This document shows positions 14,543-24,860 of a DNA stretch of 27,572 nt, one piece after another. The stretch is from the IMG/VR virus record IMGVR_UViG_3300030101_001054, positions 1 through 27,572 of that record. One strand, given 5' to 3'. Position 1 is the first letter of the stretch. Every line of letters starts with the position of its first letter. This DNA comes from a virus. The notes beneath the pieces were generated by a model. It did no database searches. It saw nothing but the letters and a program-made list of their open reading frames with translations, and was not told the origin of the DNA. A program made the translations under genes and the position numbers.

Positions 14543-16537
14543 TTATAATCCTGATAGTTGTATTTTATCTCTTTCTAAACTTTGTGCTGTTGTAACATCT
14601 CCAGCAACTACAAATGCTTTCACAGGCTGTTGTTCTTCTGTACCTAATGTTTGTGCTAATTGATTTGATGGACTATTCCCTGCAATATTAAATTGTGGAA
14701 CAGATGTAGTACTTTCTGTATCTCCTGTTTCAAGATTTGGTGTTGTTGAACTTTCAAATTTAGTGTTTTTAATTTTAGCTACATTTGCTATAGCTGTTGC
14801 AGCAGCCATAGCAGCCATAAGAGGACCCATCACAACACCAGCAGGACCCATAGATAGACCTGCTGTAAATGCAGCCATAACACTTTGAATGCCTTGTACA
14901 ATAGCCATAGCAATTTGTAGTTTTTTATTACGTTCAAATGCTTTTTTTCTTATCTTCTCTTTCTTTTCTTCATCATCTCCTGCTTTAGCTAATTCGTTAT
15001 CTGTAATTGCATTACTTAATCCTTCTAAAGCATTTAACCCTGTCATAGTATGCTGTAAGCCATTTTGAAACATTTTGAATTTTTCAGATTCTGCAAAATC
15101 TTTCATTTTTATACTTGCATTGTGAAACTTTCTTTCTAAATCTGTCAATTGCTCAATTTCTATTTCTTTGTTCTTTACAGCAAGACTTTTGTCAATTGTT
15201 GGTTCAGGTAAATCTCTAGTAGGTAATTCTATATTAAAAGAATCAACAATTTCATTTCTTTTTAGTCTAAATTGTTCTTCTAACGCTAACATCCTTGCAT
15301 CATGTTGTGCTTGTGTTATTTCTCTTTTCTTTAATGCTTCATCTAACTTTGCAGTTTCTCTATTAAATTGTGTTCCTAATGTTTCAAGCTGAACAGCCAT
15401 TGTCTGTTCTTTATTAGCTTGTTCCATATCCTCTGTTTGCCTGTCAAAATCTTGCCTCTTTTTGACCATAGCTTTGTATCTCTCAAAGTTTCTTTTTCTA
15501 GTTTCTTCTTGTCTTTTTTCATCTTCTAGAATGTTAACTTGTCTTGAGTGCCAATATTTGTCATCAATATCTTTTAAGTCTTTAAGTTCTTTTCTTCTTC
15601 TATTAATATTCTCTTTAATACTTCTAGCTGTTTCAAAATCTTCTTCTGCTAATGCTTTATGATATTCCTCCTTACCCTCAGCAATACCATCTTTTTTTGA
15701 TTGTATAGCTATTTGATTCAAAGTCATTTGTTCACCTAAAAGTTTTTGCTCCATCTCAAAAATCTCCTCATTTGTAGCACCTTTTAGTTTTGCTATTTCT
15801 ATTGCTTGGTCACCCTCTCTCTTGACATCTTTTTGAACCCTTTGTAATGATTCAGATATTTTATTATAAGTTTTTTCTATTCTTTCGTTTGCTTCTGCTG
15901 CTGTTTCTGTAGCTTCTGCTGTACCAAACCAAGCGTTCATTAAGTTTTTTACAGGGTTAAATAACGCAGCAACTAAAGCCACTAATGCAGTAATACCAGC
16001 GACAATTAAACCAACAGGATTTAAAGACATTACTACATTTAAAACTTTTTGTACTACTGTAGAAGCCATAATTGCAGCTTTTAATCCCTTAAATGCTTTA
16101 ATACCTTCACGAACAGAACTAATACCTTGCGTAATAGCCATAGCAGATTGTACTCTTAAAAGCATTTCTTCAACTGCTTCTGATTCTACACCAAAAGTAC
16201 CCATAACTCCTGTCCCTATTGCAAATGCACCTGAAACTCCTTCAATAGCACCACCTAAATTTTGTGCTGTTGTTCCAGCCATTGCATCAATTTGCAAGTC
16301 TGTATCTATAATGACTTTTTTGTAATCTCCAATTTGCCTAGATAAATCTTTAAACTCTTTAGAACTTGTATCTCCTGCTGCTGCAAGTTGGTACAGAGCA
16401 TCCTCCATTTCACCTATCTTGGTATTTAATGGTTTTACTTCACCAAATACATCTTCAAATGATGAGCCTAACTCATCCATTTGTTTAATCGCTTCTCTAG
16501 CTTGTATATCTATTTCTATTTGCTTTTTAACTGCCAT
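14543..16537 (-). CDS. Tape measure protein
   Basis: 664 residues. The N-terminus is helical (EIDIQAREAIKQMDELG), with a hydrophobic, Gly/Ala-rich central region (about 165-190, LNPVGLIVAGITALVALVAALF), then long charged coiled coils (about 220-520), a second small-residue stretch (AMAIVQGIQSVMAAFTAGLSMGPAG) and a low-complexity tail. This is the usual tape measure build. At about 1.5 A per residue it predicts a tail near 100 nm, so a siphovirus or myovirus; no contractile-sheath gene is seen, so siphovirus is favoured. The leader has a purine-rich GGGAGAAAGA just before ATG. Confidence 0.85.
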   Translation of the reverse strand: MAVKKQIEIDIQAREAIKQMDELGSSFEDVFGEVKPLNTKIGEMEDALYQLAAAGDTSSKEFKDLSRQIGDYKKVIIDTDLQIDAMAGTTAQNLGGAIEGVSGAFAIGTGVMGTFGVESEAVEEMLLRVQSAMAITQGISSVREGIKAFKGLKAAIMASTVVQKVLNVVMSLNPVGLIVAGITALVALVAALFNPVKNLMNAWFGTAEATETAAEANERIEKTYNKISESLQRVQKDVKREGDQAIEIAKLKGATNEEIFEMEQKLLGEQMTLNQIAIQSKKDGIAEGKEEYHKALAEEDFETARSIKENINRRRKELKDLKDIDDKYWHSRQVNILEDEKRQEETRKRNFERYKAMVKKRQDFDRQTEDMEQANKEQTMAVQLETLGTQFNRETAKLDEALKKREITQAQHDARMLALEEQFRLKRNEIVDSFNIELPTRDLPEPTIDKSLAVKNKEIEIEQLTDLERKFHNASIKMKDFAESEKFKMFQNGLQHTMTGLNALEGLSNAITDNELAKAGDDEEKKEKIRKKAFERNKKLQIAMAIVQGIQSVMAAFTAGLSMGPAGVVMGPLMAAMAAATAIANVAKIKNTKFESSTTPNLETGDTESTTSVPQFNIAGNSPSNQLAQTLGTEEQQPVKAFVVAGDVTTAQSLERDKIQLSGL

Positions 16538-20543: not shown

Positions 20544-20831
20544 TTATTGCCCTGCAAATTTATGTACAGGATTATTTGGTTTTACTATATTATCAAATTC
20601 TATTTCTTGTGAACTCATAACATCAACAAAATAACCATCTTCATAAGTTGGCTCTGTTAACACTCTATCTTGTTCATCATAAGTTCCTTCTGTTATTTCT
20701 ATTTTACCAATAAAAACCACAGCTTGAATATGTGCAGCATAATCTAATTTAGAATTTAATAAAACTCCTTTATTCATTAAATCTAAAATTGCATTTTTAT
20801 AATCTTCGTATTTTAATTTATATACTATCAT
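20544..20831 (-). CDS. Hypothetical tail-region protein (95 aa)
   Basis: 95 residues, start overlapping the previous stop by ATGA. Helical N-terminus (MIVYKLKYEDYKNAILDLMNKG), then beta-rich VVFIGKIEITEGTYD, and an acidic C-terminal half ending NPVHKFAGQ. No recognised domain. Between a tail-terminator-like gene and a gp10-like tail completion gene, a small neck or tail-joining role is likely from context alone. The next gene starts 3 bases after its stop. Confidence 0.65.
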   Translation of the reverse strand: MIVYKLKYEDYKNAILDLMNKGVLLNSKLDYAAHIQAVVFIGKIEITEGTYDEQDRVLTEPTYEDGYFVDVMSSQEIEFDNIVKPNNPVHKFAGQ

Positions 20832-22804
20832 ACTGTTCGTGTTACTTTTTTAATTCTACCTGTTGACATTGTGTAGGTACTAGGATTTGATATGACATTA
20901 GTTGAGTCATCCTCAAATGTTTCTGTGACTGTTGATGTTCCTGTTAAACCTGTTACAGACAATACATCTGCATTTCTTGTAGCACTTGCTGATGTTGTTA
21001 CAATATAAGAACTAGGTGTACTAGCTTCTTCTAATTGTATTCCCCATATAAAAACATCATTAGCGTCATCTCCATTTGCAGCTCTATTTATTACCCTAAC
21101 ATTTGTTGATGTTTCACCTCCAGTATTTACCACATTATATCTAACCCAATCAGCAGTCAATGTAACAGAATTTGCACCACTACCAGCTTCTATTGTAACT
21201 TTTTCTCCAGCTGTACCTTTCATGAATATAGAAAGCACATGAGTGTTTGATGTTGTTACTGTACTATTTCTAAATACTCTAGCATTAGCAACACCACCTA
21301 AAGCTAACTTTTCTGCTGTCGTTGTCCCATCAGGTGCAACTGCATCATTAGCTGTAACTGTTGATGTATTTTTTTTCCAATATGTATTGTCAAATTCTTG
21401 TGAGTAATGTAATAAATTTGTTGATTGTGCTTCTACTAAAACAGATGGACAAGTAACACCATCATAATCTAATCTAGGAACATTTGCTGCAACAGATTCT
21501 AAAATGTTACTACTATTTGTCCTGTATGCTGTTGTGTTTCTTACAACGTCTAAATCAAAACCTCCTGCTAATGGCTTCATGGCAATTAACTTTCCTGTTC
21601 CATAAGCTGATGGCTGTATTTTTCCTAAAGGTGCAGCACTAAATACATCAGATGTATCTATACAAGAAATAGATTCAACAACTCCTCCGTGAGAAACTGC
21701 TTTTCCTGTATACATATTTATAAATACTGTCAAAGGATTTTGAACAACTAATGCTAATGTATTACTTGCTAAACTTTTTGATGTTGGTGTAAGATTTGCG
21801 CCTGTTTCATCTTTTAAAGTTACTGCTGTTGTTTTAACACTAACAAATGTTCCTTCACTTGCTCCGTTAAAATTCATAGTGCTATCTGCTAACTCTAAAT
21901 TACCTCCACTTGCAACTGTTGTACTAAATGAATCATCACTATTTGAAACTGTAGCATCTGAACAAACAATAGGATTTGCAACTGTTATAACTTGAGATAC
22001 ACCACTAGGAATATTTGTTGTACTTATTGCTGTACCATTTACATATTGAACTACTGCTGTAGCATCAAGTGCTGTAGCTGTACCATTTACAGATGCTGGA
22101 AGTTGATGTGTACCAATCACAGTACCTGCACTATTTCTAACTGATATTTCTATATCTCCTAGAGCCAATGTTCCTTGTGCTAAAATACTTGCTGTGAAAC
22201 TATCGTCAGAATTACTTACTGCACTATTAGATATTGCTTGTGTTAATGAGCCACCTGATACAATCGTTCCACTATATAAAACTGTTCCTGCTGAATCTGT
22301 AATACTATATGAAGCATCTTCACAAGCTGATGGTGCAACTGTTCCACATATAGTCATTTCGTTAGGAACTTCTACATCAAATGTTGCTGCCCAACCAGCA
22401 TAAAAGTTTTCAAACCTTTCTGTAAACGATTCAAGGCTTGGAGATGAGCCATCAGCTAAAGCAAAATTATCATTTCTTAAATCTCCTCTACGCATTAACT
22501 CTAACAATCTTGTAGCAACTGCAAATTGTGTATTTAATACATCTTGTGTATTGTCGTTACCTTTAAATTCATCTGTTGTTTCTTCTTTAGACTTATCTAC
22601 AATATCCATACAAAAAACAGTAACATTAAATATGTTTGTACGTTCTGTAATTGATGCACTATTAACTTGTATATGTGCATAAGGCATTATAGTTTGTTTC
22701 GACAAATCTATTTCATATATAGAGCCTTCAGTAACAGAATTACATTGTGGGTCCTCTAGTAATTGTGTTTTTATTGTATCTAGTAAATTGTAATATGTTA
22801 TCAT
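20828..22804 (-). CDS. Tail-terminator-like protein fused to Ig-like and carbohydrate-binding-like domains
   Basis: 658 residues. Residues 1-150 (MITYYNLLDTIKTQLLEDP; EIDLSKQTIMPYAHIQV; FNVTVFCMDIVDKSKEE; GWAATFDVEVPNEM) look like the tail terminator of flavobacterial siphophages, which normally ends about here. Residues 155-357 are Thr/Ser/Gly-rich beta modules with an internal repeat: SNSDDSF then a GTL/GNL segment at about 195-220 and again at 285-310. Residues 440-625 (STNLLHYSQEFDNTYWKK; APDGTTTAEKL; YVVTT-like end) resemble the jelly-roll, sugar-binding-like domain common in phage adhesins. The protein may cap the tube and also display surface domains. Start overlaps the previous stop (ATGA). 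The domain calls are by pattern; the combined function is inferred. Confidence 0.65.
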   Translation of the reverse strand: MITYYNLLDTIKTQLLEDPQCNSVTEGSIYEIDLSKQTIMPYAHIQVNSASITERTNIFNVTVFCMDIVDKSKEETTDEFKGNDNTQDVLNTQFAVATRLLELMRRGDLRNDNFALADGSSPSLESFTERFENFYAGWAATFDVEVPNEMTICGTVAPSACEDASYSITDSAGTVLYSGTIVSGGSLTQAISNSAVSNSDDSFTASILAQGTLALGDIEISVRNSAGTVIGTHQLPASVNGTATALDATAVVQYVNGTAISTTNIPSGVSQVITVANPIVCSDATVSNSDDSFSTTVASGGNLELADSTMNFNGASEGTFVSVKTTAVTLKDETGANLTPTSKSLASNTLALVVQNPLTVFINMYTGKAVSHGGVVESISCIDTSDVFSAAPLGKIQPSAYGTGKLIAMKPLAGGFDLDVVRNTTAYRTNSSNILESVAANVPRLDYDGVTCPSVLVEAQSTNLLHYSQEFDNTYWKKNTSTVTANDAVAPDGTTTAEKLALGGVANARVFRNSTVTTSNTHVLSIFMKGTAGEKVTIEAGSGANSVTLTADWVRYNVVNTGGETSTNVRVINRAANGDDANDVFIWGIQLEEASTPSSYIVTTSASATRNADVLSVTGLTGTSTVTETFEDDSTNVISNPSTYTMSTGRIKKVTRTV

Positions 22805-23061
22805 TTCTTATAACTCTTTTTTATTAATTCTGCTTCTACTTCGTTTTTCTCTTTTTCAAAACTTAAATATGTTAAACTTATATGTATATTTAACTTACTG
22901 ATTTCGTCAAATCTTCTAACATCGCCTTGAGCGAGGGTGTAGAAATTTTGGTAAAATCCCCACTTTTTTCCAAAGTTGGAAATTCTGCTGAAATCATTTG
23001 TATTGCCTCCTGTCTGATAGAGTGTTCCGTAACGTCTTTTAAGTCTTTCGCTAAATTCCAA
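22801..23061 (-). CDS. Frameshift extension of the tail assembly chaperone (GT-like long form)
   Basis: An 86-codon frame, -1 relative to the preceding gene and overlapping it by 172 bases. It has no ATG; its first possible start is a TTG that is the end of the T9 run itself, which is what a frameshift extension looks like. The conserved-looking part is KKWGFYQNFYTLAQGDV, then RFDEISKLNIHISLTYLSFEKEKNEVE, a pattern typical of phage tail-chaperone C-termini. Slippage after F162 gives a 248-residue fusion (162 + 86). The stop overlaps the next start (ATGA). Independent translation from TTG cannot be excluded but is less likely. Confidence 0.75.
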   Translation of the reverse strand: MEFSERLKRRYGTLYQTGGNTNDFSRISNFGKKWGFYQNFYTLAQGDVRRFDEISKLNIHISLTYLSFEKEKNEVEAELIKKSYKK

Positions 23062-23546
23062 AAAAAAACCAAGCTACCTAAAGCTATACCCAAAGGCATA
23101 TACTTCATTAAATCGCTAAATTCTTTTGTTCCTTTATACTCACATATATCATATTTATCTCGTTCCTTTTTTACTATTGGTCTAAATAAAACAGCCATAG
23201 CTTTGTGCATTTCTTCTGTTTTACCTAAATAAGATGTTAAATCTGCAAATTCTCCTGTCGTTATTTCTTCAAGGTTGGTAATAAAACCAAACTCTTGTCC
23301 TTTTATTTTAAACCTATGTTTAAATTCTACTTCACTATTTAATAAATTATATAAATGTTCTGCTATTTCTCTAACGTCTTTATGCGTCATCAAAATAACT
23401 CTTTCAAAAGGTACATTACATAATGTTTCTATTGTTCGCTGATATAAAAATTCTCCATTTATATCTTTTGTTACTGTCAAATATCGCTGGTATTGTCCAA
23501 CAGATATTTCGTTCAAATTATCAGGATATTCTATTGTTACTTTCAT
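22890..23546 (-). CDS. Tail assembly chaperone, short form (G-like)
   Basis: 218 residues, first of the tail genes, about 115 bases after terL. Beta-rich N-terminus (MKVTIEYPDNLNEISVGQYQRYL) and a helical body; the block MPLGIALGSLVFFWNL (about 151-166) spans the frameshift site. Most ribosomes should finish here, giving the short chaperone; a fraction slip -1 at T9 and make the long form. By analogy with lambda G/GT the two forms would bind the tape measure and guide tail-tube polymerisation. Unusually, it is not next to the tape measure gene, which lies about 6 kb downstream. Family assignment comes from the overlapping-frame layout and the look of the extension; no catalytic motif is expected. 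Confidence 0.75.
   Translation of the reverse strand: MKVTIEYPDNLNEISVGQYQRYLTVTKDINGEFLYQRTIETLCNVPFERVILMTHKDVREIAEHLYNLLNSEVEFKHRFKIKGQEFGFITNLEEITTGEFADLTSYLGKTEEMHKAMAVLFRPIVKKERDKYDICEYKGTKEFSDLMKYMPLGIALGSLVFFWNLAKDLKDVTEHSIRQEAIQMISAEFPTLEKSGDFTKISTPSLKAMLEDLTKSVS
23060..23069 (-). promoter_or_regulatory. Slippery sequence for programmed -1 frameshifting
   Basis: On the minus strand the sequence reads G GTT TTT TTT TGG in the chaperone frame. The heptamer T TTT TTT (23067-23061) is an ideal X XXY YYZ site: both tRNA-Phe can re-pair after a one-base backward slip. After slipping the ribosome reads TTG GAA TTT AGC, the frame of the 86-codon extension. AGGTAG lies about 6 bases upstream, but Shine-Dalgarno stimulation is doubtful in Bacteroidota. 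I see no clear downstream pseudoknot. Confidence 0.8.
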
Positions 23547-23569
23547 ATCTATTTAATTAACTATTTTTT

Positions 23570-23601
23570 TTTGTTTTTGTTATATGCAATAATTATATTT
23601 G
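23570..23601 (+). promoter_or_regulatory. Possible plus-strand Bacteroidota-type promoter
   Basis: TTTG at 23570-23573, 20 bases, then TATATTTG at 23594-23601. This fits the Bacteroidota consensus (TTTG or TTG near -33, TANNTTTG near -7). It points along the plus strand, opposite to all genes, towards the hairpin at 23626-23662. In such AT-rich DNA a chance match is quite possible. Confidence 0.3.
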
Positions 23602-23625
23602 ATTTTTATTATTTGTCATAAAAAA

Positions 23626-23662
23626 GCATCTGTAGTTTGGGAGAGTGGCAGGTGCTTTTTTT
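23626..23662 (+). terminator. A/T-flanked hairpin after terL; bidirectional terminator or small RNA
   Basis: GCATCTG (23626-23632) pairs with CAGGTGC (23649-23655) around a 16-base G-rich loop, with six A before and seven T after. On the plus strand the stem is fully paired (one G-U); on the minus strand the same position is a C-A mismatch. It can therefore end terL transcription on the minus strand but is more stable as a plus-strand RNA. No open frame fits inside. Confidence 0.55.
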
Positions 23663-24860
23663 ATTGTATAAAATATTTACCTCTATTAGGATTGTCTAAA
23701 TGGTATATGATGTTATACCTAGCAGCATCTATTGCGTGATTCCAATTGTCAATATATAGTTTACTACCTTTATCTGCATAAGAATAATTATTAAACTCTT
23801 TACCTATGTTTGTGCTGTCAGGGTCAATTATAATTTCAAAATCTTGCATCCTTACAATACCTGATTCTATTGTTCCTTTTTTTACTGCTTGTATGTTTAC
23901 CCTTTGGTGTTTTAAATCTTCTATCAATCTAGGCTCTGCTGAATCTGCAATAATTAATTTATCTCCTATTCTATCTTTTATCATTGCACCTAGTATATGT
24001 GTTTTAATTCCTGTCTGATAAATATGTTCTTTTAAATATATCTTGTTTTTAGTTTTATCAATAGCAACTTCTATTAACGTATCAGGGTCTACACTAAAAC
24101 CAAAATCCATTCCACAAGATGTTTGTAAATTATCAGGATTAAATTTACCATAAGACCAATTATCAAATACAACACCTTCTGCTCTATTTATCCAAGAGCC
24201 TTTTATTATATGGTCGTATTTCTTTGGATTGTTTTCTTTGATTCTTTCTATTTGAGAAATATAACTTTTACTTAAATTCTCTTTATTGTCTAGGTATGTT
24301 GTATGTATATATGTTACATCTCCTTTACTGTGATTCATTCCTGCTTGAACTCCTGCTTCTTCAAAAAACCTTCTGTAAATAAAATGTTCTTTTGTTGCTG
24401 GATTTAGAATCATTATAACTCTATTCTGAATGTCTTTTTGACGAACAGATAAATCTATAGTATCAAAGATATTCTCATCTACTAATTCTTCAGCTTCATC
24501 AAGTACCCAAGTAGTAACACCTTGTAATGATTTAAGATTTGCTACCTGATTACCTGATGATGTTTTAATACCTCTAAATAGAATCTTACTTTTTGTTTCT
24601 CTATGTATGATTTCATCTTTTGTTATAATAAAATCATTAAACATTTTTAGGTGCTGTATCTTATCTACAAATTCAGGAATAATAGATATTGATGCTGACC
24701 TTAATGTGTATCTTGTAAATAGAATTGTATGCCCAGCTTCATATGTCATTAACAAACATAAAAGCATATTTATAGAATACGATTTACCTGAACCTCTTCC
24801 TCCTGTAACTATAAAATATCTAGTTGGATTATTTAATGTTAAATACTTATGATTTATCAC
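23661..24860 (-). CDS. terL: Terminase large subunit
   Basis: 399 residues. ATPase: Walker A GGRGSGKS at 20-27 and Walker B VLDEAEE at 119-125, with the catalytic acid following. RNase H-like nuclease: D252 (GMDFGFSVDP), D306 (IADSAEP) and D378 (HAIDAARY) form the expected acidic triad. This is the PBSX/Terminase_3 type, normal length. It translocates DNA into the prohead and cuts the concatemer. It overlaps the small-terminase candidate by 14 bases. Its stop lies in the T-run of the hairpin at 23626-23662. Very secure. Confidence 0.96.
   Translation of the reverse strand: MINHKYLTLNNPTRYFIVTGGRGSGKSYSINMLLCLLMTYEAGHTILFTRYTLRSASISIIPEFVDKIQHLKMFNDFIITKDEIIHRETKSKILFRGIKTSSGNQVANLKSLQGVTTWVLDEAEELVDENIFDTIDLSVRQKDIQNRVIMILNPATKEHFIYRRFFEEAGVQAGMNHSKGDVTYIHTTYLDNKENLSKSYISQIERIKENNPKKYDHIIKGSWINRAEGVVFDNWSYGKFNPDNLQTSCGMDFGFSVDPDTLIEVAIDKTKNKIYLKEHIYQTGIKTHILGAMIKDRIGDKLIIADSAEPRLIEDLKHQRVNIQAVKKGTIESGIVRMQDFEIIIDPDSTNIGKEFNNYSYADKGSKLYIDNWNHAIDAARYNIIYHLDNPNRGKYFIQ

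What the first reader, a model, noticed from the sequence alone, without database searches (positions are those of the whole stretch)
22801..23546. Programmed -1 frameshift in a tail assembly chaperone at a T9 run
On the minus strand the chaperone frame reads GTT TTT TTT TGG, an ideal T TTT TTT slippery heptamer (23067-23061). The -1 frame from that exact point is open for 86 codons, has no ATG, and encodes a conserved-looking tail-chaperone C-terminus. Slippage gives a 248-residue fusion beside a 218-residue short form. The logic is that of lambda G/GT. Unusually, the pair lies directly after terL, about 6 kb from the tape measure gene.
Basis: partly seen in the sequence, partly recalled or inferred. 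Interest (0 to 1): 0.72.

Follow-up and report, generated by a model that had tools for sequence, protein, structure and literature searches.

The report
T9 frameshift makes two tail-chaperone forms
A Bacteroidota-infecting phage gene beside the DNA-packaging gene very probably makes a short protein and, by slipping one base at a run of nine Ts, a longer fused one; the nine-T run is kept in over 200 related phages, which suggests that RNA polymerase, not only the ribosome, may do the slipping.

Summary
Comparative evidence is strong. Of 239 loci, 237 (202 distinct) carry both frames in the same -1 relation, with T9 (187) or T10 (15). The -1 frame is the better conserved one and has no start codon of its own. 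Very remote Bacteroidota relatives, down to about 20% identity and up to 56.5% GC, also have T9.

'Programmed -1 frameshift' is therefore supported. 'Tail assembly chaperone' is likely but rests on architecture and weak fold similarity. The position beside terL is normal for this group.

The new point is the level of slippage. In the window's broad clade the run is never shorter than nine: when the preceding base is lost, a T is gained at the other end. The both-frames-synonymous T-to-C change never occurs, no RNA stimulator is seen, and T runs of nine are avoided in a host's genes. This fits transcriptional slippage. A sister clade with the same gene pair has only T7/T8, which fits ribosomal slippage. 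Nothing here has been shown experimentally.

The parts
22890..23546 (-). zero-frame gene: 218-aa short form (G-like tail chaperone)
   Evidence: open frame with ATG; homologous protein in all 239 loci analysed; AlphaFold pLDDT 82.9; best named fold match is the Nonlabens phage P12024S protein
23060..23068 (-). T9 run, the slip site (contains in-frame T_TTT_TTT at 23061-23067)
   Evidence: T9 or T10 in 202 of 202 distinct relatives
22801..23061 (-). -1 frame T domain, 86 residues after the slip plus TGA stop; fusion of 248 aa
   Evidence: -1 frame conserved better than zero frame (47% vs 31% identity); no ATG
23074..23076 (-). TAG stop that closes the -1 frame just upstream of the T run
   Evidence: leaves room only for the run, so the -1 frame can be entered only at or next to it
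23051..23053 (-). TAG stop in the +1 frame right after the run (would end any one-base-deletion product)
   Evidence: sequence; a +1 stop within four codons in 201 of 202 relatives; may be a by-product of dual coding
23661..24860 (-). terminase large subunit, directly upstream
   Evidence: Pfam Terminase_3 E 3e-32, PHROG terminase large subunit E 9e-43
20828..22804 (-). next gene, 658 aa; its ATG overlaps the T-frame stop; tail protein match in C-terminal part
14543..16537 (-). probable tape measure protein, 6.3 kb downstream of the slip gene
   Evidence: PHROG tail length tape measure matches E 2.7e-6 to 2.9e-5

Best explanation
One gene makes two overlapping tail-assembly chaperone forms: the 218-aa G-like protein by ordinary reading, and a 248-aa G-T fusion after a -1 shift at the T9 run. 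I think the shift arises at least partly when RNA polymerase slips on T9 and inserts one U, giving U10 mRNAs that fuse the two frames; ribosomal slippage on U_UUU_UUU may add to it. By analogy with lambda, the G part would bind the tape measure protein and the T part the tail-tube protein. Shown: the frames, their conservation and the invariant run of nine or more. Inferred: that the fusion is made, that the polymerase makes it, and its role in tails. Likelihoods: a programmed -1 fusion 0.93; chaperone function 0.8; polymerase slippage contributing materially in this clade about 0.5.
For: -1 frame conserved, no own start, same run in 202/202 relatives. Run length at least nine throughout the window's broad clade; where the base before the heptamer is not T (GCT, GGT, ACT, AGT) a T appears at the 3' end so that nine remain: L244 clade, L247/L250, L248, L298/L307, L299, L301. 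The register arises at least three times on the tree, with a T10 sister, L270. Association of the two ends: Fisher p 4e-4 with three lineages. T-to-C at the heptamer's last base would be synonymous in both frames, yet 0 changes on the tree against 12-19 at four other conserved Phe codons; U_UUU_UUC shifts well in E. coli (PMC4066793). No RNA structure. In 343 kb of Galbibacter CDS, T runs of nine or more number 0 against about 7.8 expected while T7 is not avoided. Baranov et al. 2005 propose conserved 9T length among homologues as a mark of transcriptional slippage (PMC1088944).
Against: A sister clade with the same gene pair and gene order (L302, L306 and genomes of the genus of G761) has only T7, or T8 in L311, so the heptamer alone suffices somewhere in the family. 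The two outer Ts of T9 lie in codons for hydrophobic residues and could partly be kept for protein reasons. Published G/GT cases are ribosomal. No RNA, peptide or reporter data exist here. The long branches of the remote sequences make the count of independent register changes approximate. The host avoidance test also fits replication slippage.
Confidence: 0.52

Rival explanations
1. Purely ribosomal -1 frameshifting: tandem tRNA-Phe slippage on U_UUU_UUU, with the outer Ts of the run kept for amino-acid reasons or because a longer U run helps the ribosome slip.
For: The in-frame T_TTT_TTT heptamer is the only feature shared by every relative including the T7/T8 sister clade. U_UUU_UUU is among the heptamers that shift in E. 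coli even without stimulators (PMC4066793). The published tail-chaperone shifts reviewed are ribosomal (PMC5009743).
Against: Does not explain why the run is never 7 or 8 in the window's broad clade, why loss of T at one end goes with gain at the other, or why the doubly synonymous TTC is never used. No stimulatory structure was found.
Confidence: 0.4
2. The -1 frame is a separate gene with its own start, or the open frame is an accident or a homopolymer sequencing error (true run T8 or T10).
For: TTG at the slip codon is a possible start in this phage; in P12024 the C-terminal part of the -1 frame is annotated as a separate small gene, gp41.
Against: TTA, not a start, in 172 of 202 relatives; no ATG in the first 25 codons in 69 of 69. 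The same run length occurs in about 200 distinct contigs and in isolate phages and a bacterial isolate genome, always leaving the frames separate.
Confidence: 0.03
3. The frameshift is real, but the pair is not a tail assembly chaperone; it is another two-product morphogenesis or packaging factor linked to terL.
For: Next to terL wherever the gene order was read, not next to the tape measure gene; no Pfam, PDB or functional PHROG match.
Against: Two-product -1 fusion with a small helical T part is the tail-chaperone pattern; fold search finds a protein annotated tail assembly chaperone (A0A8S5V8Z8, probability 0.99, E 0.017, TM about 0.4); neighbouring genes are tail-like.
Confidence: 0.15

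Closest known systems
Lambda gpG / gpGT tail assembly chaperones
   Same: Short form plus a low-abundance -1 fusion that adds a T domain; no stimulatory signal apparent; tailed-phage morphogenesis genes
   Different: Slip site is an invariant T9 homopolymer, not a mixed heptamer; pair sits after terL, 6 kb from the tape measure gene; no detectable sequence similarity in the libraries searched; level of slippage not known
Shigella mxiE and similar genes read by transcriptional slippage on a T run
   Same: Two overlapping frames fused when one extra U is put in at a run of Us; the longer product needs the slip (PMC1088944, PMC3711429)
   Different: Not homologous; there shown by experiment, here only inferred
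dnaX: A_AAA_AAG ribosomal shift in E. coli, A9 transcriptional slippage in Thermus
   Same: One gene family in which related members seem to reach the same result with a ribosomal heptamer or a nine-base homopolymer
   Different: dnaX slippage makes a shorter product; here a longer one; both levels untested here
Nonlabens (Persicivirga) phages P12024L gp40/gp41 and P12024S gp38/gp39
   Same: Direct homologues (23-26% identity) with the same T9, the same -1 frame and the same place after terL
   Different: Annotated as two separate hypothetical proteins, fusion not recognised

Membership tests
Programmed -1 recoding (frameshift) site | slippery sequence in the zero frame at the point of frame change | tested here: met
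   T_TTT_TTT in frame in 202/202, also in remote clades
Programmed -1 recoding (frameshift) site | downstream frame conserved as protein and lacking its own start | tested here: met
   47% vs 31% identity, 0/69 with ATG in first 25 codons
Programmed -1 recoding (frameshift) site | fusion product observed | not testable with these tools
   needs mass spectrometry or reporter
Ribosomal -1 PRF | stimulatory hairpin or pseudoknot downstream (common, not obligatory) | tested here: not met
   mean z -0.36 to 0.02; RNAalifold predicts 0 pairs; pseudoknots not tested as such
Ribosomal -1 PRF | X_XXY_YYZ heptamer suffices without a longer run | tested here: inconclusive
   true in the T7/T8 sister clade, never seen in the window's own broad clade
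Programmed transcriptional slippage | homopolymer of nine or more A or T with length conserved among homologues | tested here: met
   T9 or T10 in 202/202 plus remote members with shifted register; criterion from PMC1088944; fails in the T7/T8 sister clade
Programmed transcriptional slippage | mRNAs of heterogeneous run length | not testable with these tools
   needs cDNA sequencing
Tail assembly chaperone G/GT | short form plus -1 C-terminal fusion in the morphogenesis region | tested here: met
   (as sequence; products not observed)
Tail assembly chaperone G/GT | located between major tail protein and tape measure gene | tested here: not met
   lies after terL, 6.3 kb from the tape measure gene; also after terL in P12024 and remote proviruses
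Tail assembly chaperone G/GT | sequence or fold similarity to known chaperones | tested here: inconclusive
   no PDB fold match, no Pfam; weak BFVD match to an annotated chaperone
Tail assembly chaperone G/GT | binds tape measure and tail-tube proteins; absent from virions | not testable with these tools
   experiment

The most novel reading that the evidence does not exclude
A phage tail-chaperone fusion made by RNA polymerase slippage at a strictly kept T9, in a family whose sister clade uses a ribosomal T7 heptamer: a natural swap between ribosomal and transcriptional recoding in one gene, and, as far as the searches here reached, the first tail chaperone made that way.
Probability: 0.42. 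Interest if true: 0.75.

Novelty: new variant of a known kind. Interest (0 to 1): 0.56.

Why it matters
It adds a large, unannotated G/GT-like family in phages of Bacteroidota, a phylum that rarely uses Shine-Dalgarno signals, and shows that the whole signal appears to be a homopolymer. If polymerase slippage makes the fusion, the ratio of the two forms would be set at transcription. The T9 and T7 clades then give a ready natural experiment on how ribosomal and transcriptional recoding replace each other. In practice, gene callers split or miss the fusion, as in P12024.

Tried and rejected
Independent start for the -1 frame: rejected. Sequencing error or true T8/T10: rejected by independent assemblies with the same length. 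Downstream hairpin stimulator: none. 'T9 is universal in the family': I held this until the last genome scan; rejected by the T7/T8 clade. The +1 stop after the run as independent evidence for slippage: set aside, since dual coding can explain it. Sequence and PDB searches for the G fold: no hits. Flavobacterium phage 6H gp10, a weak fold match: no T9, and no simple fusion could be read. L303-L305, weak hits: L304 and L305 showed no such gene pair; L303 was not examined.

Full report
WHAT IS THERE. On the minus strand of this 27.6-kb IMG/VR phage record, directly after the large terminase gene (23661-24860), a 218-aa frame starts at 23546 and ends at 22890. At codons 160-162 it reads GTT TTT TTT, followed by TGG: a run of nine T at 23068-23060 that contains T_TTT_TTT in frame. 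The -1 frame is closed by TAG at 23076-23074, just before the run, and is open from there to TGA at 22803-22801. Reading into it at the run adds 86 residues without methionine and gives a 248-aa fusion. Its stop overlaps the ATG of the next gene.

IS IT REAL. Relatives were collected by scans of viral contigs with patterns outside and inside the junction. Of 239 loci analysed (window and the two P12024 phages included), all had the zero-frame protein and 237 also the -1 domain, every one in the -1 relation. After removing identical copies, 202 remain: 187 with T9, 15 with T10, none shorter or longer. The codon before the two TTT varies (GTT, CTT, TTT), as does the codon after (TAC, TAT, TGG, TTG, TCG, TTC), but all nine positions are T in every sequence. 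Beyond the first 20 codons the -1 frame is the better conserved one in the overlap (47% against 31% identity), and none of 69 non-redundant members has an ATG in the first 25 codons of the -1 frame after the run. The isolate phages P12024L and P12024S of Nonlabens have the same arrangement, annotated there as two hypothetical proteins. Bacteroidota genomes and MAGs, among them the isolate Galbibacter pacificus CAA-3, carry it too. The family is uncommon in sequenced genomes: 3 of 400, 2 of 398 and 1 of 396 in family, order and phylum samples with the first profile.

LENGTH OF THE RUN. In more remote members the place of the run relative to the codons moves, but the length does not drop below nine. 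Examples are GCT TTT TTT TTC in the L244 clade, with a T10 sister GTT TTT TTT TTC in L270; GGT TTT TTT TTG in L247 and L250 but GTT TTT TTT TGG in their clade mate L251; GCT TTT TTT TTG in L248 and in L298, AGT in L307, ACT in L299, and GCT in L301, whose locus is 56.5% GC. On a tree of 87 members built without the junction columns, the shifted register arises at least three times and T10 four times. A lost T at one end goes with a gained T at the other (Fisher p 4e-4 counting three lineages). The remote branches are long, so the count of events is approximate.

SYNONYMOUS TEST. Changing the last base of the heptamer from T to C keeps Phe in the zero frame and Leu in the -1 frame. On the tree, TTT/TTC changes number 12 to 19 at four other conserved Phe codons of the G part, and none at either junction codon. 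Measured in E. coli, U_UUU_UUC belongs to the efficient ribosomal heptamers and is used by IS elements (PMC4066793). A purely ribosomal site would therefore be expected to use TTC now and then. Caveats: TTC is a minority codon here (598 of 2911), the hosts are not E. coli, and the -1 reading would move from TTA to the rarer CTA.

HOST TEST. In 343 kb of predicted coding sequence from the Galbibacter contig, T runs of nine or more number 0 against about 7.8 expected under synonymous-codon shuffling. T8 runs number 10 against 20.5, while T5 to T7 are not avoided. A runs of nine or more number 7 against about 33. Baranov and colleagues used this kind of analysis and found that selection against A and T runs sets in at nine in many bacteria. 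They proposed that a 9T run of conserved length among homologues is very likely used for transcriptional slippage (PMC1088944). Avoidance at nine also fits replication slippage.

NO OTHER SIGNAL. Folding energies up- and downstream do not differ from shuffled sequence, and the consensus fold of 31 members has no pairs. The +1 frame, which a one-base deletion would enter, is closed within four codons in 201 of 202, but dual coding can explain that.

THE COUNTER-EVIDENCE. A last scan found a sister clade with the same protein pair. Profile comparison is collinear up to the FF at the junction (probability 93%), and the T part matches at 94%. In the one locus examined the order is terL, pair, protease, then a protein of the same PHROG as the window's probable capsid protein. 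Its run is CAT TTT TTT A, that is T7, or T8 in one. So the heptamer alone is enough there, which fits ribosomal slippage, and T9 is a feature of the window's broad clade only. The simplest reading of all the data is that the family shifts at a U run, that the ancestral level cannot be told, and that the T9 clade has a length requirement that ribosomal slippage alone does not predict. I put polymerase slippage as a material contributor at about one half, ribosome only at about 0.4.

WHAT THE PROTEIN IS. No Pfam family, no functional PHROG and no solved structure matches the G or T part. The G model (pLDDT 82.9) matches unnamed proteins of uncultured tailed phages, P12024S, and weakly a protein annotated as tail assembly chaperone. 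Several BFVD entries of 226-267 aa are hit by both the G and the T model and may be single-frame fusions; I could not read them. The T model is only moderately confident (pLDDT 74.7). With the two-product logic and the tail-like neighbours, tail assembly chaperone is the best name, at about 0.8. The place after terL is the arrangement also seen in P12024 and in the remote proviruses read.

SHOWN AND INFERRED. Shown by sequence: frames, conservation, run length, register changes, lack of a start and of RNA structure. Inferred: that the fusion is made, how it is made, and what it does.

Noticed in passing
L302, L306, L308-L318: In the genus of genome G761, 11 of 13 genomes match the G profile of the T7/T8 sister clade, one copy each; the locus examined (L319) has terL, protease and a probable capsid protein, so it may be a domesticated element (gene transfer agent or tailocin-like) rather than a chance prophage.
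   Followed up: partly
L005 6001-6695; L006 6001-6695: In P12024L and P12024S the -1 domain is annotated as a separate 55-aa hypothetical protein that starts at the zero-frame stop; the N-terminal part of the T domain is missing from the annotation.
   Followed up: yes
L294 9950-10930 (Flavobacterium phage 6H gp10): A weak fold relative of G lies 2.6 kb before the tape measure gene; a T-like frame follows but no simple slippery site joins them, so the record may hold a frame error or another mode of recoding.
   Followed up: partly
window 23564-23572: An A9 run on the coding strand in the A-rich leader before the chaperone ATG; L002 has an A9 run at the same place. Untranslated, perhaps part of an A-rich initiation region.
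   Followed up: no
window about 23620-23661: Between terL and the chaperone gene the minus strand reads AAAAAAGCA...TGCTTTTTT, a wide-looped inverted repeat with a T tail that might be a weak terminator; the pattern scan did not call it.
   Followed up: no
window 20828-22804: The 658-aa product after the chaperone joins an N-terminal part of unknown PHROG, possibly tail-terminator-like, to a C-terminal part similar to tail proteins; in L003 the N-terminal part is a separate gene of about 150 aa.
   Followed up: no
BFVD A0A516L611, A0A516L5A8, A0A6J5N0W0, A0A6J7WJY4, A0A6J5SVK3: Proteins of 241-267 aa matched by both the G and the T models, possibly relatives that encode the fusion in one frame; their DNA could show how the short form is then made.
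   Followed up: no
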